From positions 1 through 64,000 of IMG/VR virus record IMGVR_UViG_3300024520_000057: a stretch of DNA of 64,000 nt; one strand, given 5' to 3'. Positions within the stretch are counted from its first letter, which is position 1. Each line of letters opens with the position of its first letter. The stretch comes from a virus. Both the position numbers and the translations under genes were made by a program. This document shows positions 22,415 through 34,473 of this stretch, in pieces. The notes beneath the pieces are model-generated. The model made no database searches. It was not told where the DNA came from and saw only the letters and a list, made by a program, of their open reading frames with translations.

Positions 22415-22918
22415 ATGTTTTCAGGTGAGAAAATATTTGTGACTATTAATTTGAATGGTGGAATCACAGGAGTTCAAGGTGTTATTAATGCTGGGTGTAT
22501 TATTAATTATGATCCCAATCTTTTTGATCCAGATGCAGATCCTATATTGCCAAATACACAGGTGGATGCTGAAAATGGTAATTTATTTCAGGGCACTCCA
22601 AGTGTTGCTGCCAGCATTGCTAAAGATGGTGGTGGAGTTGAAATTCCAGGCAAGATAGTTGTAGCTGTGGCAGATAATGTTAATCCACCCAGCTTAGGAG
22701 CTGGAGTTGCAGCTGAGGTTGTTAATATAGCATTTACAGCAAAGCAGGTAATTACACCAGTAAGTGCTACATTTAATATTGATCCAGCAGGAAGGGAAGT
22801 CAGAACAATTAATGGAGTTGTGGCTGGAACATCATGGAATGAAATATCACCACAGATCACAGTTGAACCAATTCCTGAAGCACCAGTGGCAAGCATAAAT
22901 TTTAAATTTAGCAGGTGA
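22415..22918 (+). CDS. Cohesin-like domain protein
   Basis: AAGGAG precedes ATG 22415. The 167 residues match the cohesin/CBM-type beta-sandwich pattern: FSGEKIFVTINLNGGITGV, a YDP block (CIINYDPNLFDPDADP), then PGKIVVAVADNVNPP and VVNIAFTAKQVITPVSATF. Unlike cell-surface cohesins it has no signal peptide, so it would stay in the cytoplasm and could enter virions. It lies 4 nt before a gene with two dockerin-like loops. It ends INFKFSR. The family call comes from pattern recall only. Confidence 0.6.
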   Translation: MFSGEKIFVTINLNGGITGVQGVINAGCIINYDPNLFDPDADPILPNTQVDAENGNLFQGTPSVAASIAKDGGGVEIPGKIVVAVADNVNPPSLGAGVAAEVVNIAFTAKQVITPVSATFNIDPAGREVRTINGVVAGTSWNEISPQITVEPIPEAPVASINFKFSR

Positions 22919-22922
22919 TGTT

Positions 22923-23465
22923 ATGAGGAAAATGGTTGTATGCCTATGGCTACTGTTATTTGTAGCTGTAGGCTTTTGTCAGTTACCAGATACACTGAAG
23001 TATGTGTATATTGAAATGGATGTGGTGGGTTGGAGAGGAGTGGAAAGAATTATTGAAATTGTTGATAATGATACATTGTTAAATATTCCCAATCCAGATT
23101 TTATGAGTCCACTTATTGATGATACCAGTGTTTTCCATTACGGAGTTCAACATTATAATTATCCAGATGGAAGCAAATTTGCCTTTGGTTTAGAATATCA
23201 ATTTGAAACTATATTTGTCACACCAGATAGTCAGTATGTCTATTGTATAAAATGGATGTTTCTTCATGGTGACTGGGATGATGATGGAATTGTTGGAGCT
23301 CCAGATTTAGGTGTGGTTGTTCAGAATATAGGAACTTTTGGTGTTCCCTATGAGGGTGCAGGGGACATAGACAGGGATGGAGCAGTGTTGGCACCTGATT
23401 TAGGATGGCAGATTGATCCAAATGCAGTTTATGGTAGAATATATACACCAACAGATTGTGATTAA
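22923..23465 (+). CDS. Secreted dockerin-like protein
   Basis: A signal peptide (KMVVCLWLLLFVAVGFCQ) with likely cleavage before Gln20 is followed by a strand-rich domain (about 25-110) and a C-terminal dockerin-like pair. Calcium loop 1 is D117-x-D119-x-D121 with D128 (GDWDDDGIVGAPDLG); loop 2 is D148-x-D150-x-D152 with D159 (GDIDRDGAVLAPDLG). The 31-residue spacing and Gly at position 6 of both loops match type I dockerins. Type I dockerins bind cohesins tightly when calcium is present. Confidence 0.75.
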   Translation: MRKMVVCLWLLLFVAVGFCQLPDTLKYVYIEMDVVGWRGVERIIEIVDNDTLLNIPNPDFMSPLIDDTSVFHYGVQHYNYPDGSKFAFGLEYQFETIFVTPDSQYVYCIKWMFLHGDWDDDGIVGAPDLGVVVQNIGTFGVPYEGAGDIDRDGAVLAPDLGWQIDPNAVYGRIYTPTDCD

Positions 23466-23468
23466 AGA

Positions 23469-24416
23469 ATGGCAAAATTGTTTCACATAGGAACATTGGT
23501 TGGTGTGAATTCAACATCAGATGGATACAGAACAAAGGGATTTAAAAAGGTATTTGATTCTGTTTATTTTTATGACTACAGAAAAAAACATAAATTTAAT
23601 AAATTATGGACACACATAGGTGATTTCAAACCAGATATAATATTCATAAACAAAGCTGAATTAATCCCTGGATGGGAAATACAAAAAATAAAGAAAAGAT
23701 TTCCAAATATATTTGTAGCTTATTATTATGGAGATTCACCAGAAGATGTCAAAGATTATGCATTATTATTAGGCAAGCAAGCAGATGTTTTGCTTGTTCC
23801 ACATTTCCATAAACAGTCCTGGAATTATTGCTACAACAGAGGTGTTAAATTAATAATAAAATATTATCCAGGAACAGATTTAGATGTATTTAAGAAAATG
23901 GATAAGGAAATAGAATATGATATTGCATTTGCTGGAACAAGAACTGATAAGTGCACAAATTCAGCATTAAGATATGATTTGTTAACTGGATTGTCTGAAA
24001 AATATAGAGTTGCTGTTGCAGGCGGTGGTGCTTGGAAAGATGTAGATGGGCTGCATTATAAAGGATTTTGTTATGGTGAAGAATTATCAGAATTTTATTC
24101 CAAGTCAAAATTTATTTTAAGCATTGATAATAACAATACATATGCTGGAATAAGCAATAGAATAATGAATGCACTTTCTTGTTCTGTGCCTGTATTGATG
24201 TATTATTTTGAAGGCTATGAATCTTTGGGATTAAAGGATGGTTATAATGTTATTGTATTTAAAGATTTCCAACACTTGCTGCTTCAGATTGAGATGTATA
24301 TGAAGTCACCAGACCTTTGCAAATCAATTGGAGAAAATGGCAGAAAATTGATATCAGAAAAACATACTTATGAACACAAAGCATTAGAATTGAAGATGAT
24401 ATGGGAAGGACATTAA
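23469..24416 (+). CDS. CgeB-like glycosyltransferase (GT-B)
   Basis: This 315-aa protein lacks a signal peptide and has the CgeB/DUF3880-type layout: KLFHIGTLVGVNSTSDGYR, DFKPDIIFINKAELI, YDIAFAGTRTDK, and the C-terminal SNRIMNALSCSVPVLMYYF with ENGRKLISEKHTYEHKALEL. It is a clear paralogue of the gene at 39778 (shared KHTYxH and YDIxFxG motifs). The sugar and acceptor are unknown. Confidence 0.8.
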   Translation: MAKLFHIGTLVGVNSTSDGYRTKGFKKVFDSVYFYDYRKKHKFNKLWTHIGDFKPDIIFINKAELIPGWEIQKIKKRFPNIFVAYYYGDSPEDVKDYALLLGKQADVLLVPHFHKQSWNYCYNRGVKLIIKYYPGTDLDVFKKMDKEIEYDIAFAGTRTDKCTNSALRYDLLTGLSEKYRVAVAGGGAWKDVDGLHYKGFCYGEELSEFYSKSKFILSIDNNNTYAGISNRIMNALSCSVPVLMYYFEGYESLGLKDGYNVIVFKDFQHLLLQIEMYMKSPDLCKSIGENGRKLISEKHTYEHKALELKMIWEGH

Positions 24417-25627
24417 AAAAACCAACACCTGTTGGGGAATATTTCCTTGACCACTTAACAGGTGCCATAGCAAATCCAGCTGTTATTGAATCCACAGATA
24501 TTTGGAGCGATGAGATCTGGGAAGAACAGCCAGTGGATGTAGAAACATTCTGTGAAGAATTTGTTGGGGAAGGATTATTTCCAATACAGGCAGGATTTGC
24601 TGAAGAAACAATGGGTTCTAACCCAATGGTTTGGGATGATAAATATTATGGTGGAATTGCATATTGGGGAAAAGGATGTGTATCTGGTGATACTATTCTG
24701 AAAGATGAAAAAACAGGAAAAGAATATACAATTAAAGAACTTGCTGAAAGTAAAAAATCTATTTATATAAAATCTTTGAAAACTTATTTTAATGTTAATA
24801 TTAGAAAGGATAGACACCAATATATTATTAAGAAAACGGGCATTCCATTTAAAAAAGGTGTAACTGAGTTGTTCAAAGTGAGATTGAAAAGTGGTAAGGA
24901 AATTATTGTTAGCAAAGAACATAAATTTTATACATCAGATGGATGGAAGAAATTGAAGGATTTAAAAATTGGTTCAAAATTAATAACATCTGAATTGATA
25001 CAAGATAGATTAACAAGTGAACAAGAATTACAAAGAAGAAATAAAATTAGCAATACTTTGAAAGGTATTAAAAAGACACCTGAACATATTTTAAATATGA
25101 AAAATGTTGAATGCTCAAGTAGATTTAAAAATGGGCACATTCCTAATTTTACTGGTGCAGATTTAAGTGAAGAATCTAAAGATAAAATTAGGCAAAAATT
25201 ATTAGGAAAAAAATTGTCTTGTGAAACAAGAAGAAAAATGAGTATTGCTAACAAGGGAATGAAACATCACAAAGATGATTGTCTGTGTATTTGTTGTAAA
25301 ACAAAAAGAGGTGAATTTAAAGTTTATAGAAGATATAATTTACAGTATAATGGATATACATTTAGATCAAGTTGGGAAGTTAAGTTTGCTGTGTATTTAG
25401 ATGGTTTGGGTATTAAATGGGAATATGAACCTGAATCATTTAAGTTAAGTTCAGGCATTTCATACATACCAGATTTTTATTTATCAAAATATGATTTATG
25501 GATAGAATTGAAAGGATTCAGTTCATTTGATGGTAAACAGAAAATGGATTTGTTTGAAAAGGAATATAATAAGAAATTGATAATTTTATACAAGGATGAT
25601 TTGAATAGAATTGGAGTTGGTGTGTGA
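24401..25627 (+). CDS. Terminase large subunit N-terminal part fused to N-intein and homing endonuclease
   Basis: Residues 1-92 are the N-extein of the packaging ATPase, ending in half a P-loop (GGIAYWGKG). C93 begins the N-intein (CVSGDTILKDEKTGKEY). The linker carries NUMOD3-like repeats (LSEESKDKIRQKLLGKK and ETRRKMSIANKG), a Cys knuckle CLCICCK, and a PD-(D/E)xK nuclease (SSWEVKF, YIPDFYL, WIELKG). It ends at TGA 25625. The gene overlaps the upstream transferase by 16 nt. The other half of intein and terminase is the next gene. Confidence 0.88.
   Translation: MGRTLKKPTPVGEYFLDHLTGAIANPAVIESTDIWSDEIWEEQPVDVETFCEEFVGEGLFPIQAGFAEETMGSNPMVWDDKYYGGIAYWGKGCVSGDTILKDEKTGKEYTIKELAESKKSIYIKSLKTYFNVNIRKDRHQYIIKKTGIPFKKGVTELFKVRLKSGKEIIVSKEHKFYTSDGWKKLKDLKIGSKLITSELIQDRLTSEQELQRRNKISNTLKGIKKTPEHILNMKNVECSSRFKNGHIPNFTGADLSEESKDKIRQKLLGKKLSCETRRKMSIANKGMKHHKDDCLCICCKTKRGEFKVYRRYNLQYNGYTFRSSWEVKFAVYLDGLGIKWEYEPESFKLSSGISYIPDFYLSKYDLWIELKGFSSFDGKQKMDLFEKEYNKKLIILYKDDLNRIGVGV
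24677..25624 (+). mobile_element. N-half of split intein with PD-(D/E)xK homing endonuclease
   Basis: The insertion begins at TGT 24677 inside the ATPase P-loop codons and runs to the end of the first gene. The endonuclease residues look intact (Glu in SSWE, Asp in IPDF, Glu and Lys in ELK), so it may still be mobile. The splicing Cys1 is present. With the 38-residue C-half it makes one element of about 1061 bp (24677-25737). Confidence 0.85.
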
Positions 25628-27210
25628 TAAAATACGATGAAATTGAATCTATTGAGAGTGTAGGGGAACAAGATTTTTATGATTTGGAAGTTCCTGATAC
25701 TCATTGTTATTTTGCTCATGGGATATTAAATCATAATAGTGGCAAGGATAGAACCATATCGAAAATTCAGCTGTATGTTGTTTATAAGCTTATGTGTATG
25801 AAGGATCCACAGAAGACTTTGAGGGAAGTGTATGGATGTTCAATTGGACATGGCGATGCAATTGATATTGGAAATATGAGTATCAATGCTCGTCAGGCAG
25901 TGAATGTTTATTTCAAGAAATTCAAACAAATGTTGAAGGCAGTCAGAAGTCCTGCAACAGGGAAAAATTGGTTTGCCGAAAAGGGAGTTGATTTGAGGGA
26001 TGGATATGATGTCCAAAGTGCTGAAGTTCGTTTTCCAATGAACATAACAGCTCATTCCCTCAATGGAGAAACAAATACTGGAGAAGGGCTAACTTTGTTT
26101 TTTGTTACTATTGATGAATTTGGGTCATTTCCTGCAGAGAAGGCATTTGATTTGTTGGATGCAGCCAGAGATACAGTGGAAAGTAGATTTACAAAATATG
26201 GAAAGGTGTGTGTAATTAGCTATAAATACAATCACAATGATCCGATGGATACACTTTATAACAAAGAAAAAAACAATCCTGAAATTTATACCAGCAAGGC
26301 ATCAACTTGGGAAGTTATGGTAAACAGAGAAAAGTCTGATTTTGCAAGGAAGTATTTACAGAATCCAGAGAAGGCAAAAATGACATATGAATGTGAAGGT
26401 GGGATTGAGGAAGGTGGATATGTTACAAAGAAATACATGCTTGAATATATGTTTGATGGAATGTATGTGAATCCAGTTCAGGGAGATTTAGTATCAGTGG
26501 ATGGATCTTATTTACATGCCTTGAAGTTTAATCCTAAATTCAGGGGAGTAACAGGCAGAATTTATGCAGTTCATGTTGATATGGCAAAAGGAAAAGTTGA
26601 GGAGAAGGGGGATGCTGCTGGACTTGCACTTGCTCATTGTGAACTTATGACGGCAAAGATAGATGCTGATTTGAAAAGGGAGCTGATTCATGAAGGAATA
26701 ATTTTGCCAGATACATTTTCAGAAAAATTGAAAGGCAGGAAAGGTGTGGTCATAGATTTAGCACTACAGCTTATTGCAAAGAAAAGAGCTGAAATTGAAT
26801 TTGCTGATGTTAGGAAATTTATTTTGTTTTTAAGAGATGTTCTGAAATTTAACATCAGGTTTGTAACTTTTGATGGATGGCAAAGTGTTGAGTCTATTCA
26901 GGTTCTGAAGTATCATAAAATTGTTGCTGATGTTTTGTCTGTTGACAGAAATAATGAGGCATATGATTTATGGAAAGAGTTGATGTATCAGCAATTGATG
27001 AAATGTTATCCACACCCAATTGCAAGACGAGAGGCAAGGGAATTGATAACAGCTGACAATGGCAAGATTGACCATCCTGAGAAAAGCTGGGACAGGGAAG
27101 TGATGGAGGGGATTGATAAGGGAAGCAAAGATGTAATGGATGCAATAGCAGGTGTAACAAAGAATTCGTATGATAGAATAAGCATTTCACCAACAGTATT
27201 TTTTGGATAG
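25624..27210 (+). CDS. C-intein plus terminase large subunit C-terminal part
   Basis: GTG 25624 overlaps the stop of the first half (GTGA), with GGAG 7 nt upstream at 25613-25616. Residues 1-38 are the C-intein, ending HGILNHN, with Ser39 as +1 nucleophile. The extein resumes SGKDRTISKIQLY, completing the P-loop. Walker B is FFVTIDEF near 160-167. The nuclease domain has HVDMA near 316 and KDVMDAIAG near 502. The spliced terminase would be about 582 aa (92 + 490). Confidence 0.9.
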   Translation: MIKYDEIESIESVGEQDFYDLEVPDTHCYFAHGILNHNSGKDRTISKIQLYVVYKLMCMKDPQKTLREVYGCSIGHGDAIDIGNMSINARQAVNVYFKKFKQMLKAVRSPATGKNWFAEKGVDLRDGYDVQSAEVRFPMNITAHSLNGETNTGEGLTLFFVTIDEFGSFPAEKAFDLLDAARDTVESRFTKYGKVCVISYKYNHNDPMDTLYNKEKNNPEIYTSKASTWEVMVNREKSDFARKYLQNPEKAKMTYECEGGIEEGGYVTKKYMLEYMFDGMYVNPVQGDLVSVDGSYLHALKFNPKFRGVTGRIYAVHVDMAKGKVEEKGDAAGLALAHCELMTAKIDADLKRELIHEGIILPDTFSEKLKGRKGVVIDLALQLIAKKRAEIEFADVRKFILFLRDVLKFNIRFVTFDGWQSVESIQVLKYHKIVADVLSVDRNNEAYDLWKELMYQQLMKCYPHPIARREARELITADNGKIDHPEKSWDREVMEGIDKGSKDVMDAIAGVTKNSYDRISISPTVFFG

Positions 27211-27706: not shown

Positions 27707-29260
27707 ATGTTAGGTTTTAAAAAGAACTTTTTTGTAAAAGCAGAAAAATTGAGTTCCATTGACTCAAGGGAAGTGCAGTTTGGTGGTGGCAAGACTGATG
27801 GTGATATTGAATATCCTGAAAAGATTTCAACACTTACATTTGCTCAAATGGATAATATGTATCTTGCAAATGTATGGATAAGGGCATGTGTTGATAAGAT
27901 AGTGGATAGGGTGTCAGATATCAATCCATTGATTAAGCCATTATCATATGGAAAAGCAGGACAGCCAACAGATCAAACCAAAAGGAATATGTTTGCACTT
28001 GGGGAACTCATCACAAAACCAAATGATAACAATGAGAGCTTTGATTCCTCATTGCGAAAGAAAGTAACAAGGGACATGCTAAAGTATGATGCTGCAGCCA
28101 TAGAGATTGTAAGAGAAACAAATTTAGCAACTGCCAAAAAAAGGATTCAAATTTATGCTGTTCCAGGAAATTCAATTAAGCTGAATGTCAATGAAAAAGG
28201 GATGTTTGATAAACAGAAATCTTATGTTCAGATTGATTTTGAAATGAAGGAAATTGCAAGCTGGGGAATGGAAAGGATAATGTATTTCATGCAGAATCCC
28301 AGATCCAATAGTGTTTATGGATTGTCTAAACTTGAGTCATTGAATCAAACAGTTACAGCTGAGTTATATGCCAGCCAGCACAATTTAGATTTTTTCTATA
28401 ATAATGCTACACCAAGATTTGCAGTGTTAGTTGAGGGAGCTGGAACAGGACAGGCAGATGCAGCAATTGAAAGATTCAGGTCATGGTGGAGAAGGGAATT
28501 GCAGGGACAACCTCATAAGCCGTTGCTGATTGCAACTGAAGAAGGAAACATAAAGTTTGAAAAGGTAGGACTTACAAATGATGAAATGCAGTTTCAGGAA
28601 TACAGTAGATGGCTGTTAACAAAGATAATGGCAATTTACGATATGCAGCCAATTGTGTTAGGTGTTGTGGATGTTGGAATGGGAAAGCTGAATAGCAATG
28701 AACAGACAAAGCTGTTTAAAAGGGATGCTGTTAGACCACACCTGAAATTGTTTTCAGAAAAATTTAATAACCAAATTGTATTTGCTAAATCTGGATTTGG
28801 GTTCAATGATATATATTTAGATTTTGATTTGGAATTGGATGATAAGAGGGAACAGGCAGAATGGCATGAAATTTATACAAGGAATGGAGTCCTTACAATC
28901 AATGAAATAAGAGTAAGGGGACTGGGGCTGAATCCTGTGCCATGGGGAAATGTTCCTTATTTACAGAATAATTTAGTTCCATTTGGAATAAATCCAAAAA
29001 CAGGGGAATCAGCTGTTCCAGTTACAGCTCCATATTCATTGGCAACACAAACTGATAATCCACCTATTGTTCCAACAGTAATATCAACAAAGACACAGCT
29101 GTTAAAATATTTAGAGGAAGGAAATGGATTTCCAGTTGGATGGGAAACAATGGATCCTGGAAAAAGACTTGAGATATTAGATGAAATTGTCAAGGCAAAG
29201 GACAAGATGTTGTCTAAAGTTTATTTATTTCCAAAAGGAAATGTAGTAGATGCAGACTGA
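27707..29260 (+). CDS. Portal protein
   Basis: This 517-aa protein has the PBSX/HK97-type portal pattern: a Trp/Cys segment LANVWIRACVDKIVDRVSD, then KYDAAAIEIVRE, and the wing region IASWGMERIMYFMQNPRS with NSVYGLSKLESL. Near 280-320 is KFEKVGLTNDEMQFQEY then RWLLTKIMAIYDMQPIVLG, typical of portals. It forms the dodecameric DNA channel of the head. The next gene overlaps by 11 nt. Confidence 0.9.
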   Translation: MLGFKKNFFVKAEKLSSIDSREVQFGGGKTDGDIEYPEKISTLTFAQMDNMYLANVWIRACVDKIVDRVSDINPLIKPLSYGKAGQPTDQTKRNMFALGELITKPNDNNESFDSSLRKKVTRDMLKYDAAAIEIVRETNLATAKKRIQIYAVPGNSIKLNVNEKGMFDKQKSYVQIDFEMKEIASWGMERIMYFMQNPRSNSVYGLSKLESLNQTVTAELYASQHNLDFFYNNATPRFAVLVEGAGTGQADAAIERFRSWWRRELQGQPHKPLLIATEEGNIKFEKVGLTNDEMQFQEYSRWLLTKIMAIYDMQPIVLGVVDVGMGKLNSNEQTKLFKRDAVRPHLKLFSEKFNNQIVFAKSGFGFNDIYLDFDLELDDKREQAEWHEIYTRNGVLTINEIRVRGLGLNPVPWGNVPYLQNNLVPFGINPKTGESAVPVTAPYSLATQTDNPPIVPTVISTKTQLLKYLEEGNGFPVGWETMDPGKRLEILDEIVKAKDKMLSKVYLFPKGNVVDAD

Positions 29261-31067
29261 TGTTATTGAGAAGCAACAAACAGATACAGAACTTTTATTT
29301 CAGTGGCAACTTCTGGAAGAGGAAAGACTTGAAGCAAGACTGCAAAAAGAATTTAAGGATGCCAAGAGCAACACACTCAAGCTTTTCAATGAAGAGTTTG
29401 TTCCACTGTATGAATTAAGCAATAAATTTTTATCCTCATCACAAGAACTCACCAGAATAGATTTTGCACCAAAGTTCAAATACAAACAAGTCGGGGACTA
29501 CAGATTCAAAGTTCACACTTTTCCAGTTAAGATTAAAGAATGGTTTGAAAAATCTCCAGGAGATATTCCACAGTCATTAATCAATGTAATTGCTGAGGTA
29601 AATCCAGATCCATTTGGAACAGCTCTGACAGACTCTGTTTTTAGGGGAGTTGATGCAGGAGGTCAAAGTGTATTCAAGACCTTTGACATTGGAATTGATT
29701 TTGCTTTACTGGATCCTAATGTTGAAAATTATTTGAGAAATTATCAGATACAACTTGCTTCAGCTGTAACAACAGAAATCTCTAATAAGATTAAATTTGA
29801 AATACTTGATGGGATAAGAAATTTCGAAAGCATTCCTGAAATCAGGGGAAGAATATTGGAAGTCTGGAACAAGCCGATTGAGGTAAATGTTTCCACTAAA
29901 ATAGATACACAGGGAAATGTTCTTAGACAAGGATACAGATATAATATTTCACCTGATAAATGGGCAACAACAGTAGCAAGAACAGAGGTGTCAAGAGCAT
30001 TTGCATCAGGAAGATTGGAATCTTATAAACAGATTGGAGTTGTTGAAAAAGTCCAGTTTATGGTTACACCTGATGAAAGGTTGTGTCCAAACTGTAATTT
30101 GATGGATGGACAAATTTTTACAATTCCAAATGCAGCAGGTTTGATTCCACTTCATGCTATGTGTAGGTGCACTTGGATTCCAGTTTTAAAGGGTGATGTT
30201 AATGCAGCAAAAACACAGGCAGCACAGAATGTAGAAAAGTTATACAAGAATGTTAAGAAGGCTGATCCATTTCAAAAAGCTGTAGATGCCAGATGGGCAA
30301 CTTTTAAGGATAAGCATGCTGGTGAATTAAAGAAAATTAAAGAGTTTAATAAAAATTTTAAAAAGCCGTTAATTAGTAAGGGAGAATTGGGAGATTTATA
30401 TATCAGGATGAATTTGTCAGCAGCATTCCAAAATGATATGATTGCAATGTATCACCAAACAATGGGAGCTGTTCTTCACAGCCAGTTTAGAGTAACAATG
30501 TTAAATTGGTATGGATCAGCAAATAGTGGTGGGGCAGGTTTGTTGAAGAATGCTGCATCTGTTCACAAAAAATCAAGTGTGTTGTATCATGACTATGAGT
30601 TTATAGACCATGACAAATCATTGATTAAATGGTTTAAGGATAATGTTGAAAGGTCATTTAAAGGAATGAGAATGGATCCGAATCATTTTCAGGATGCATT
30701 TAAGATTACTCAAATGTTTAGTGAAAAATTTTTAACAGAAGTATATGGGAAAACTATTAAATTATATAGAGGTGTTAAAGCTGATTATTTTGAAAAATTA
30801 GGTATTAAAAAAGGAAGTCTGTCAACCCATGATACACTGAATGTTGGTCAAAATTCACTTACTTCATGGACTGTATCAAAGGATGTTGCACGAGAATTTT
30901 CAAGAGGTGAGGGAAGTGCTGTTCTTGAGATTGAGGTGAATGTATCTGATATTCTCAATCACTTCATATCACCATTTGTGCCCGGCATTGAATTTGTTAC
31001 AGAGTTTGAAATGATGTATATGTCTAAAGGCATAGATACAGCAAGGATTGCTATAATTATGGAATGA
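29250..31067 (+). CDS. Minor head protein (SPP1 gp7/Mu F-like) fused to an ADP-ribosyltransferase
   Basis: Residues about 230-315 are the Mu F/SPP1 gp7 head-morphogenesis domain (WATTVARTEVSRAFASGRL, LCPNCNLMDGQIF, LHAMCRCTW). A helical region follows. The C-terminal 110 residues look like an R-S-E class ADP-ribosyltransferase: Arg in KLYRGVKADYF near 505, Ser-Thr block NSLTSWTVSKDVAREF near 535, and the ExE-like TEFEMMYMS near 580. Such a virion enzyme could be injected and modify host proteins, as T4 Alt does. Confidence 0.85.
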   Translation: MQTDVIEKQQTDTELLFQWQLLEEERLEARLQKEFKDAKSNTLKLFNEEFVPLYELSNKFLSSSQELTRIDFAPKFKYKQVGDYRFKVHTFPVKIKEWFEKSPGDIPQSLINVIAEVNPDPFGTALTDSVFRGVDAGGQSVFKTFDIGIDFALLDPNVENYLRNYQIQLASAVTTEISNKIKFEILDGIRNFESIPEIRGRILEVWNKPIEVNVSTKIDTQGNVLRQGYRYNISPDKWATTVARTEVSRAFASGRLESYKQIGVVEKVQFMVTPDERLCPNCNLMDGQIFTIPNAAGLIPLHAMCRCTWIPVLKGDVNAAKTQAAQNVEKLYKNVKKADPFQKAVDARWATFKDKHAGELKKIKEFNKNFKKPLISKGELGDLYIRMNLSAAFQNDMIAMYHQTMGAVLHSQFRVTMLNWYGSANSGGAGLLKNAASVHKKSSVLYHDYEFIDHDKSLIKWFKDNVERSFKGMRMDPNHFQDAFKITQMFSEKFLTEVYGKTIKLYRGVKADYFEKLGIKKGSLSTHDTLNVGQNSLTSWTVSKDVAREFSRGEGSAVLEIEVNVSDILNHFISPFVPGIEFVTEFEMMYMSKGIDTARIAIIME

Positions 31068-31353: not shown

Positions 31354-31393
31354 AAATTCCACCCAGAATTATATAAAAAATGGAGTGGAATTT
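31354..31393 (+). other. Inverted repeat over the start of the ChaB-protease gene
   Basis: AAATTCCAC (31354-31362) and GTGGAATTT (31385-31393) are exact inverted copies around a 22-nt loop. The right arm begins at the GTG start codon of the next gene, so the mRNA could hide the start in a hairpin. The rest of the 31276-31384 gap is AT-rich with no clear terminator or promoter. Confidence 0.5.
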
Positions 31394-32905
31394 TTGCCAT
31401 ATTCTTTGCCAAACAATATACCAGATTCCATAAAAGGACTTCCAGCTGGTGCAAAAAAGATTTGGGTGGCTGTATTTAATTCTGTTTTGAGTGGAGGTGG
31501 AAGTGAGGATAATGCAAGGAAAGCTGCTTGGTCAAAAGTAAAGGATAAATACAAGAAGCAAGGGGACAAATGGGTGAAAAAGAAATACACCAATATAAAG
31601 AAATTGCCTGTTAAAGTTCAAACACTCCCAGAAACCACACAAAATGTCTGGATGGCATTATATAACCAAAATAGAACAAATGGATTAACAAATAAACAAG
31701 CTTCTGAAAAAGCTTGGAATTCAGTCAAAGAAAAATTTGAGTGGAATTCTGATAAAGAAACCTGGAATGTAAAAAAATCAATGGAGAATTTTATCATGAA
31801 AGAGTTTTTGAATAAAACAAAAGATAAAGGATTATTCAAGGTATTTATTCCATTTGACCAAGAAAATGGTATGGCAAAAATTCTTGAGAAAGAAGTGGAT
31901 GGGAAGGTAAAGAAATTTTTACATGGAATTGCAAGCAATACAACAGTGGACAGGGAAGATGAAAGAATTTCAAAACAGTTCATCAAAAAAATGCAACAAA
32001 CAGCTTTGGGACTTACTGTTTTCTCTGAGCATGAACATAAGATTGAGAAAACAATTGGATACATTGATGATACAGGAGGAGATGAGGATAATTTTGAAAT
32101 ATTGACTGCACTGGAACCAGAGTTTGAACCTGAAAATAATCCTACAGGCAATGAAGTGGTAACGAATATTTTGAACAAATTAGACCATGGCATTAAGCTT
32201 GGATATTCAGTAGGTGGGAAAGTTACCAAAGCACACAAGGTATTTGATGAGAAGGCACAAAGAGATGTAAGGGAATTGGTGGATGGTGATGTTTATGAGG
32301 TTTCAGTTACAGCAATGCCATCTGCATATGGAACTTGGGTTACACCTATTATAAAAAGTATGAATGAGTTTATTGATGAGGATGTGGAAGTAGATGAAAT
32401 AGAGGAAGAAGTGGAAGAGGAAGCAAGTGAAAAACCAACACTTGAAAAGGATTTTGTATTAAGCTGGGCAATAACAAATGGCAAGGACACAGAGGCTGTG
32501 AAGAAAGCAATTGAACAAAAAAGAAATGAGTTGGGACTTACAGTTCCACAAATGGAGTTGATTACCACTAAACATTTGAGTGGTGAGTTGACAGAGGAAA
32601 ATTTTGAAAAATTATTGACTGCCTTTCAAACAATAAATACACTTGATGATGAAGGTGTTGATACCAAAAAATTATCTAAAGCATTGGATGAGATAATTCA
32701 GCAGGATAACATCAGTGGTCAGTTGTATGATTTGTTTTGGGCATTTAGACAAGCAGTGCATAAGATTGTCTATAATGATAATTTAGAGCCAACAGAGAAG
32801 AAGACCAAAATCAACAGCCTGTCATCTGAATTTGGTGATAAGGTTGAATCCCTTTCTACACAGTTGGCTGAATTAGCAGCAACACTTGATGAACAATTAG
32901 CTTAA
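31385..32905 (+). CDS. Prohead protease (U35-like) with two N-terminal ChaB domains
   Basis: GTG 31385 is the only in-frame start that keeps the first ChaB domain. ChaB 1 (about 5-62) is LPNNIPDSIKGLPAGAKKIW with AARKAAW-type helix; ChaB 2 (about 72-130) is KLPVKVQTLPETTQNVW with ASEKAWNSVKE. The protease follows (about 150-325): LHGIASNTTVDREDERIS, VFSEHEHK with His near 213, and LGYSVGGKV with Ser near 272, ending VYEVSVTAMPS. The acidic C-terminal 180 residues may act as a scaffold. Confidence 0.88.
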   Translation: MEFLPYSLPNNIPDSIKGLPAGAKKIWVAVFNSVLSGGGSEDNARKAAWSKVKDKYKKQGDKWVKKKYTNIKKLPVKVQTLPETTQNVWMALYNQNRTNGLTNKQASEKAWNSVKEKFEWNSDKETWNVKKSMENFIMKEFLNKTKDKGLFKVFIPFDQENGMAKILEKEVDGKVKKFLHGIASNTTVDREDERISKQFIKKMQQTALGLTVFSEHEHKIEKTIGYIDDTGGDEDNFEILTALEPEFEPENNPTGNEVVTNILNKLDHGIKLGYSVGGKVTKAHKVFDEKAQRDVRELVDGDVYEVSVTAMPSAYGTWVTPIIKSMNEFIDEDVEVDEIEEEVEEEASEKPTLEKDFVLSWAITNGKDTEAVKKAIEQKRNELGLTVPQMELITTKHLSGELTEENFEKLLTAFQTINTLDDEGVDTKKLSKALDEIIQQDNISGQLYDLFWAFRQAVHKIVYNDNLEPTEKKTKINSLSSEFGDKVESLSTQLAELAATLDEQLA

Positions 32906-33471: not shown

Positions 33472-34473
33472 ATGGAAAACAAAGGATTAAATGATGCTTT
33501 GAGGAAGGCTCTGATGAACACAACGGCAGGAACAGGTGGAGATTTTTTGCCACTGCCTCTTGCCAGACAGTTCATTCAGTATGTATGGGATCAAAACTTT
33601 CTCCGACAAGCATTCCGTGTTGTCCCGATGAGGACAAAAACTCTTGATTATCCCAAAATCTTGAGCAAACCAAAAGTGTATTATGAATCAACTGAAGGAA
33701 CAGCAGCAATCAAAACCACATTCACAACTGCAACCTTGCGACTTACTGCAAAGAAATTCTTGAGTGAAATTGACTTATCCATGGAAGTGATAGAGGATGC
33801 TCAGAATGATATGCAAGCAATAGCAAGGGAAATTTTTGCAGGGGCATTGGCAGAAGCAGAAGAACAGGCTATGATAATTGGTGATCCTGCACATAGTCCT
33901 ACCACAGCTACAGAAGCAAGTGAAACTGCCAGCACATGGTTTACCAAGGATCACAGAATGATATGGTATGGATTGCTCACATTGGCAGCAGATATTGCAG
34001 GTGTTCTTGGGGACGATACAAGGGCAGCCAATAGAGTAGATGGTGGTGGTGGAGCAATGTCCACAGCAATAATTCGTCAAGCAATGTATAATCTTGGAAA
34101 GTATGGCAGAGTGATGCAGAACTTATTGCTCATTCTGAATCCATGGAGTTCAAACCAGTTACTGGATGATGCCAAGTTGGTTACACTTGATAAATATGGT
34201 CCACAAGCAACAATATTTACAGGTGAATTCGGCAAGTTGTATGGCAAAGTTGCAGTGATAAATTCTGCTCAAACAACAGATGGATATGGTGTAATTACAC
34301 ATATTGGAAATCCCATCATTGGGGATAGAAGGAGAGTGAAAATCAAGACAGATGAGGAGATCAAGGAAGATGTCAAGGTATTTGTCTTGAGTGAGAGAGC
34401 AGATTTTCAGGTTATGCACAAAGCAGCATTATGTCAGGTCTGGAATTTAGAATCACCATCAACAATTAGTTAA
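33472..34473 (+). CDS. Major capsid protein, HK97 fold
   Basis: AAAGGA precedes ATG 33472. This 333-aa protein has the HK97-type order: an N-arm (LPLARQFIQYVWDQNFLRQAF), E-loop strands (TTATLRLTAKKFLSEIDLS), the spine helix EDAQNDMQAIAREIFAGALA, and P-domain and A-domain strands (AQTTDGYGVITHIGN, KVFVLSERADFQV). CpG is more frequent here than in most genes, perhaps from selection for expression. A terminator follows. Confidence 0.9.
   Translation: MENKGLNDALRKALMNTTAGTGGDFLPLPLARQFIQYVWDQNFLRQAFRVVPMRTKTLDYPKILSKPKVYYESTEGTAAIKTTFTTATLRLTAKKFLSEIDLSMEVIEDAQNDMQAIAREIFAGALAEAEEQAMIIGDPAHSPTTATEASETASTWFTKDHRMIWYGLLTLAADIAGVLGDDTRAANRVDGGGGAMSTAIIRQAMYNLGKYGRVMQNLLLILNPWSSNQLLDDAKLVTLDKYGPQATIFTGEFGKLYGKVAVINSAQTTDGYGVITHIGNPIIGDRRRVKIKTDEEIKEDVKVFVLSERADFQVMHKAALCQVWNLESPSTIS

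What the first reader, a model, noticed from the sequence alone, without database searches (positions are those of the whole stretch)
24401..27210. Terminase large subunit split by a split intein whose N half carries a PD-(D/E)xK homing endonuclease
The P-loop is cut between GKG and SGKDR. The N gene ends with C93-type intein plus NUMOD3-like repeats and a nuclease domain with IPDFYL and WIELKG; the C gene starts with a 38-residue C-intein ending HN before Ser. The two genes overlap as GTGA with GGAG 7 nt upstream. Known fractured genes keep the endonuclease as a separate gene between the halves; here it is fused to IntN, which looks like an intermediate between a full mobile intein and a free split intein.
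Basis: partly seen in the sequence, partly recalled or inferred. Interest (0 to 1): 0.8.

Follow-up and report, generated by a model that had tools for sequence, protein, structure and literature searches.

The report
Mobile split intein carrying its endonuclease
A phage DNA-packaging gene is broken in two by a self-splicing protein element whose first half also carries the DNA-cutting enzyme that spreads it; the same broken layout recurs in divergent phage contigs and has recently jumped between phages, so it is a real mobile element and not a sequencing error.

Summary
TerL is interrupted in its P-loop (AYWGKG|SGKDR). ORF1 (24401-25627) encodes N-extein, IntN, NUMOD3/zinc-knuckle linker and a nuclease; ORF2 (25624-27210) encodes a 38-residue IntC and the rest of TerL; they overlap as GTGA. 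Error is excluded as sole cause: an identical contig (L001) and four divergent contigs (L019, L054, L055, L056; 46-47% identical) split at the same point with an ATGA overlap, in different junction DNA. Intein-less relatives show the intact site. The unit homes: L055 and L056 share an intein with 1 mismatch in 1019 bp while flanking terminase differs by 21%; the window's intein (64-66% identical to those of distant hosts) sits among intein-less terminases. The same site elsewhere carries free-standing, C-fused, decayed, contiguous or no endonuclease, plus a mini-intein that looks re-fused, retaining the IntC start Met. The nuclease resembles T7 endonuclease I, not Vsr. 'Intermediate between mobile and split intein' is only partly supported: the N-fused split form is a persisting mobile state, and splitting looks reversible. 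Trans-splicing and DNA cutting are untested. New variant of the fractured-gene/split-intein kind.

The parts
24401..24676 (+). N-extein of TerL (92 aa, ends AYWGKG, first half of the P-loop)
   Evidence: aligned with intein-less terminases L002, L005, L007 in which GKG and SGKDR are contiguous
24677..24991 (+). IntN splicing domain (about 105 aa; Cys1; block B SKEH)
   Evidence: PF14890 and TIGR01445; PDB profile hit DnaB intein 1mi8 E 2.3e-9
24992..25339 (+). linker with NUMOD3 (25205-25270) and a conserved H-x3-C-x-C-x2-C knuckle (25268-25297)
   Evidence: PF07460 over cut-off; cysteines invariant in alignment A5
25340..25624 (+). T7-endonuclease-I-like PD-(D/E)xK nuclease lobe (catalytic E in SSWE, D in IPDFYL, ExK in WIELKG)
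   Evidence: profile vs PDB 1m0d/1fzr E 8e-6 to 5e-5, phmmer E 3e-4 with catalytic residues aligned; phrog_9019 E 1e-22; AF2 pLDDT mostly 77-93 over this lobe
25613..25616 (+). GGAG Shine-Dalgarno-like site 7 nt before the GTG start
   Evidence: sequence
25624..25627 (+). GTGA start/stop overlap of the two genes
   Evidence: ATGA at the same place in L019, L054, L055, L056
25624..25737 (+). IntC (38 aa, blocks F and G, ends His-Asn)
   Evidence: PF14890 positions 119-155 and TIGR01443
25738..27207 (+). C-extein of TerL (490 aa, begins Ser+1 Gly Lys Asp)
   Evidence: 52-60% identical to intein-less TerL of L002, L005, L007; Streptomyces phage terminases E 3e-40

Best explanation
It is a mobile, naturally split class-1 intein in the P-loop of a phage terminase large subunit. 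Two translationally coupled genes make (i) N-extein-IntN-NUMOD3-nuclease and (ii) IntC-C-extein. IntN and IntC associate and trans-splice to give a 582-residue TerL with an intact Walker A loop, freeing IntN-nuclease (316 aa) bound to IntC (38 aa). The nuclease, still fused to IntN, cuts intein-less TerL genes at the conserved P-loop DNA, and recombination copies the whole split unit (about 1.06 kb, both intein halves) into the new host. Shown by sequence: anatomy, conserved splicing and catalytic residues, conserved split, host/intein incongruence, a homing-like conversion tract in relatives. Inferred: trans-splicing, coupled translation, DNA cutting.
For: Splicing blocks complete in both halves. 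Empty-site alleles in L002, L005, L007, L008, L009, L010. Same split in an identical contig and in four divergent N-fused contigs, stop/start overlap conserved, intein length always 2 mod 3. Nuclease catalytic residues invariant among the N-fused forms; nuclease dN/dS 0.29 between L054 and L055 at dS 0.6. Homing footprint: L055 and L056 share 1018 of 1019 bp of intein, the identical flanks reaching 134 bp upstream and 8 bp downstream, then about 21% mismatch in the C-extein. Transfer into the window lineage: inteins 64-66% identical to L055 and L020 while host C-exteins are 38-42%; the host tree puts the window among empty terminases at 98-100% SH-aLRT. The 24 bp around the site match at 21 of 24 between window and L055. 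The contiguous relative L020 is predicted as a HINT fold (pLDDT 93, TM 0.9 to Ssp DnaB mini-intein).
Against: No experiment. The window nuclease is below the Pfam cut-off for Phage_endo_I (17-18 vs 29.1 bits). AF2 confidence for the whole IntN-nuclease is low (63.9). The recent homing event is seen in relatives, not in the window's own lineage.
Confidence: 0.86

Rival explanations
1. Ordinary contiguous intein with an in-cis nuclease; the split is a sequencing/assembly error or a fresh frameshift in the GTGTGTG run.
For: One GT unit less would join the frames; contiguous inteins with related nucleases exist (L039/L041 at this site; Miltoncostaea DnaE).
Against: Identical in L001; same split with different junction DNA in L019, L054, L055/L057, L056. 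No unsplit N-fused relative was found in the scans run.
Confidence: 0.03
2. Programmed ribosomal frameshifting joins the two frames, giving a full-length cis-splicing intein as well.
For: ORF2 is always in the same frame relative to ORF1; L055 has AAAA just before the stop.
Against: No slippery heptamer shared by the window, L019, L054 and L055 (inspection); a start codon overlapping the stop is kept instead.
Confidence: 0.05
3. TerL is inactivated and the two ORFs are relics.
For: L019's C-extein has a frameshift about 400 codons in.
Against: Window exteins are complete with all splicing residues; C-extein and nuclease are under purifying selection in L054/L055. A PF03237 search found no other terminase in the record, though that model also misses this TerL.
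Confidence: 0.03
4. Transitional step: the state a mobile contiguous intein passes through on its way to a free split intein.
For: All steps exist at this one site: in-cis (L039), N-fused split (window), free-standing (L046), decayed (L036).
Against: These lie on different branches and the L046 and L051 nucleases are only distantly related; the N-fused form recurs and is mobile; the nested contiguous form L020 looks younger than the split.
Confidence: 0.25

Closest known systems
Fractured genes with split inteins and a free-standing endonuclease (Dassa et al. 2009, NAR 37:2560; paper not held, content from memory; later examples described in PMC7891396 and PMC6892783)
   Same: phage gene broken at a conserved motif by a naturally split intein with a homing-type endonuclease at the break
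   Different: here the endonuclease is fused to IntN in one ORF; two genes, not three. L046/L047 at the same TerL site show the classic three-gene layout
Contiguous inteins with an in-cis homing endonuclease
   Same: order IntN - nuclease - IntC; L039/L041 (same site) and Miltoncostaea DnaE (L017) have related nucleases in cis
   Different: a stop/start overlap separates nuclease and IntC here
AceL-TerL / GOS-TerL / Cat-TerL split inteins (PMC11766414)
   Same: natural split inteins named for phage TerL
   Different: those are atypically split (IntN 25-37 aa) with Cys at +1; this one is split at the usual endonuclease position with Ser at +1
T7 endonuclease I family (PF05367; PDB 1m0d, 1fzr)
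   Same: catalytic E, D, ExK aligned
   Different: joined to NUMOD3, a zinc-knuckle-like motif and an intein, as a homing enzyme would be

Membership tests
Naturally split intein (class 1) | IntN with nucleophilic residue 1 and block B His; IntC with blocks F and G, terminal Asn, and Cys/Ser/Thr at +1 | tested here: met
Naturally split intein (class 1) | two separate genes, each with one half of one host protein, stable in evolution | tested here: met
Naturally split intein (class 1) | protein trans-splicing activity | not testable with these tools
   needs co-expression
Fractured gene (free-standing endonuclease between halves) | endonuclease as its own gene between the two half-genes | tested here: not met
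   nuclease is in frame with IntN in ORF1, no internal stop
Contiguous mobile intein with in-cis endonuclease | one open frame through IntN, endonuclease and IntC | tested here: not met
   frame changes at 25624-25627
T7 endonuclease I-like nuclease | sequence similarity with aligned catalytic E, D, ExK | tested here: met
   the window alone is below the Pfam cut-off, best relative E 7.5e-9
Vsr-related / EDxHD homing endonucleases | sequence or fold match to Vsr or I-Bth0305I better than to other PD-(D/E)xK enzymes | tested here: not met
   no Vsr hit by sequence; Vsr only rank 42-44 by fold, E about 0.1
Homing (mobile) intein | element-limited identity between alleles with diverged flanks; empty alleles of the site exist | tested here: met
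   (identity tract in relatives L055/L056)
Homing (mobile) intein | site-specific cleavage of the intein-less allele | not testable with these tools
   needs purified protein

The most novel reading that the evidence does not exclude
Splitting is reversible and compatible with mobility: a lineage of split inteins with the nuclease fused to IntN spreads between phages as a split unit, and deletion of the nuclease can rejoin the halves into a contiguous mini-intein that keeps the IntC start Met (L020). Elsewhere at the same TerL site other endonucleases sit on IntC (L051) or are free-standing (L046), so one P-loop site has sampled nearly every intein layout.
Probability: 0.55. Interest if true: 0.75.

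Novelty: new variant of a known kind. Interest (0 to 1): 0.62.

Why it matters
How natural split inteins arise, and why the usual split point coincides with the endonuclease insertion point, is an open question. Here one insertion site in one protein family holds empty, mini, in-cis (three nuclease types), N-fused split, free-standing split, C-fused split and decayed split forms, so order and direction of change can be tested by phylogeny and at the bench. It shows that a split intein need not be a dead end: it can home as a split unit. The halves are also new candidate split inteins with +1 Ser, including a Ser1 form (L051).

Tried and rejected
Frameshift/sequencing error as sole cause (rejected: recurrence in divergent contigs). 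Vsr-like nuclease (replaced by T7 endonuclease I-like). Scanning a degenerate HN-SGKD DNA pattern (too few fixed bases). Terminase PF03237 search of the own record (the model does not reach this TerL). Plasmid and phage collections for the same fused split unit (none covering it, only separate nucleases, other inteins and one contiguous DnaE intein). The single genome-contig scan gave no relative with this nuclease. Nuclease-led viral scan: of the 80 loci kept, only five, all known TerL records, carried detectable intein parts. Monophyly of the N-fused split forms without L020 is rejected only weakly (AU p 0.037), so the re-fusion claim is kept as likely, not proven. The literature library does not hold Dassa 2009; no held paper that I found describes an IntN-fused endonuclease in a natural split intein, which is not proof of absence.

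Full report
WHAT IS THERE. The window is part of a 73,214-base IMG/VR virus record with a packaging and head block: TerL halves, portal (27707-29260), Mu-F-like head protein (29250-31067), ChaB/prohead-protease-like (31385-32905) and head protein (33472-34473), followed by tail genes. TerL is in two ORFs. ORF1, 24401-25627, holds 92 residues of N-extein ending AYWGKG, then IntN from Cys93, a NUMOD3 stretch, a conserved H-x3-C-x-C-x2-C knuckle and a nuclease. ORF2, 25624-27210, starts with GTG, holds a 38-residue IntC ending His-Asn, then SGKDR and the remaining TerL. The spliced product would be 92 + 490 = 582 residues. NCBIfam N- and C-terminal intein models are above cut-off and Pfam Intein_splicing continues from ORF1 (profile 6-96) to ORF2 (119-155).

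IS THE SPLIT REAL. The frames could be joined by removing one GT unit at 25620-25626, so error had to be excluded. A second contig (L001) is identical over its whole 5416 bases, although it might come from a related sample. Stronger: profile scans of IMG/VR found four further distinct contigs with the same arrangement, L019 (3300033145), L054 (3300031227), L055 (3300035037; L057 nearly identical) and L056 (3300036943), whose IntN-nuclease is 46-47% identical to the window's. In each the nuclease ORF ends and IntC starts in the -1 frame through an ATGA overlap, with different junction DNA; the intein length is always 2 mod 3. A one-off error cannot do this.

INSERTION SITE. Relatives without intein (L002/L006, L005, L007, L008, L009, L010) read GKGSGKD continuously. 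Streptomyces, Rhodococcus and Thermus phage terminases are more distant homologues.

THE NUCLEASE. A profile of five IntN-nucleases hits T7 endonuclease I structures (1m0d, 1fzr, 2pfj; E 8e-6 to 7e-5), and phmmer with the window nuclease alone aligns the catalytic E, D and ExK. PHROG 'Holliday junction resolvase' 9019 scores E 1e-22. By fold the nuclease lobe resembles other PD-(D/E)xK enzymes (Bax1, AbaSI, Vsr weakly; note the low overall model confidence). So 'PD-(D/E)xK' is right; the specific kin is T7 endonuclease I. A scan led by the nuclease kept 80 viral loci; 75 had no detectable intein part and the five with intein parts were TerL records already known. Between L054 and L055 the nuclease has dN/dS 0.29 at dS 0.6, so it is maintained while in the split form.

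MOBILITY. L055 and L056 differ at 1 of 1019 intein positions; identity extends 134 bp upstream and 8 bp downstream and then falls to about 79% in the C-extein. L056's host terminase is sister to L054's, not L055's, though its intein is L055's. This is the expected footprint of homing with co-conversion, and it moved both intein halves at once. The window's intein is likewise out of place: 64-66% identical to those of L055 and L020, whose hosts are only 38-42% identical to the window's TerL, while the window's closest hosts (L005 60%, L002 56%, L007 52%) have no intein. The 24 bp around the site match at 21 of 24 between window and L055, and at 22 of 24 to the empty L005, so a conserved Walker A target can explain jumps across distant hosts.

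OTHER LAYOUTS AT THE SAME SITE. Contiguous mini-inteins: L020, L040, L043, L045, L050. Contiguous with a LAGLIDADG-type insert (judged by size and motifs only): L037, L038, L042, L044, L049. Contiguous with a related PD-(D/E)xK nuclease: L039, L041. Contiguous with an HNH-like insert (by motif): L048. Split with a free-standing nuclease gene between the halves, each gene overlapping the next: L046/L047. Split with the nuclease fused to IntC, the mirror image, and IntN beginning with Ser: L051. Split with only a short remnant after IntN: L036. The L046 and L051 nucleases are related to each other but only faintly to the window's, so they are separate acquisitions or old divergences.

DIRECTION OF CHANGE. 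In the intein tree, window, L019, L036, L054, L055/L056, L020 and L040 group at 91/88 (L040 on a long branch, its place unsure); L020 joins L054-L056 at 82-87 bootstrap. Holding the N-fused split forms together without L020 is worse by 13 log units, AU p 0.037, a weak rejection. L020's DNA reads like the L055 IntN linker (GATAAGATAGCTATTAATTCAAC.ACA) joined directly to TTATGATAAA.TTTGA.GAAATAGAATC, the IntC start of the split forms, and keeps Met where the other contiguous inteins compared have K, T, V, E or D. The simplest reading is deletion of the nuclease and re-fusion. AF2 gives L020 a HINT fold at pLDDT 93. Hence the N-fused split form is better seen as a persisting mobile state than as a passing intermediate, and splitting can be undone.

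HOW IT WORKS (commitment). Shown from sequence: complete splicing residues, conserved overlap, nuclease maintained, unit-wise transfer in relatives. Inferred: termination-reinitiation coupling makes the two polypeptides in balance; they trans-splice to TerL; the released IntN-nuclease with bound IntC cuts empty alleles. I put 0.86 on this as a whole.

COMPARISON. Fractured genes keep the endonuclease as its own gene (Dassa 2009, from memory; PMC7891396, and PMC6892783, describe such cases with GIY-YIG and HNH genes). Contiguous inteins carry it in cis. The present layout meets neither definition. TerL split inteins known so far (AceL, GOS, Cat) are atypically split with +1 Cys. I found no held paper describing an endonuclease fused to IntN of a natural split intein, but the library lacks the key paper. 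Verdict: new variant of a known kind.

Noticed in passing
L051 1932-3066: Split TerL intein with the nuclease fused to IntC, and Ser instead of Cys as intein residue 1; a candidate split intein with Ser1 and Ser+1.
   Followed up: partly
L020 2089-5127: Its TerL seems to carry a second intein near the C terminus (GSKDC|CFVGGTKVSL...VFVHN|SDALAG) with an HNH-like insert.
   Followed up: no
L017 (Miltoncostaea oceani plasmid) dnaE: Contiguous DnaE intein with an in-cis nuclease related to the window's, annotated only as DNA polymerase III alpha.
   Followed up: partly
L019 C-extein, about 400 codons after the intein: The terminase frame is broken downstream of the intein (C-extein stops after 398 aa and continues in another frame): assembly error or decay.
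   Followed up: no
window 22415-23465: Cohesin-like protein (weak, below Pfam cut-off) followed by a protein with a dockerin-looking DWDDDG...DIDRDG repeat (no Pfam hit), just upstream of a glycosyltransferase and TerL.
   Followed up: partly
window 29250-31067: Mu-F-like head protein with a C-terminal region weakly similar to DRAT ADP-ribosyltransferase (just under cut-off).
   Followed up: no
L026 1858-5526: A DNA polymerase ORF that appears to hold two separate inteins, the second with an HNH-like insert.
   Followed up: no
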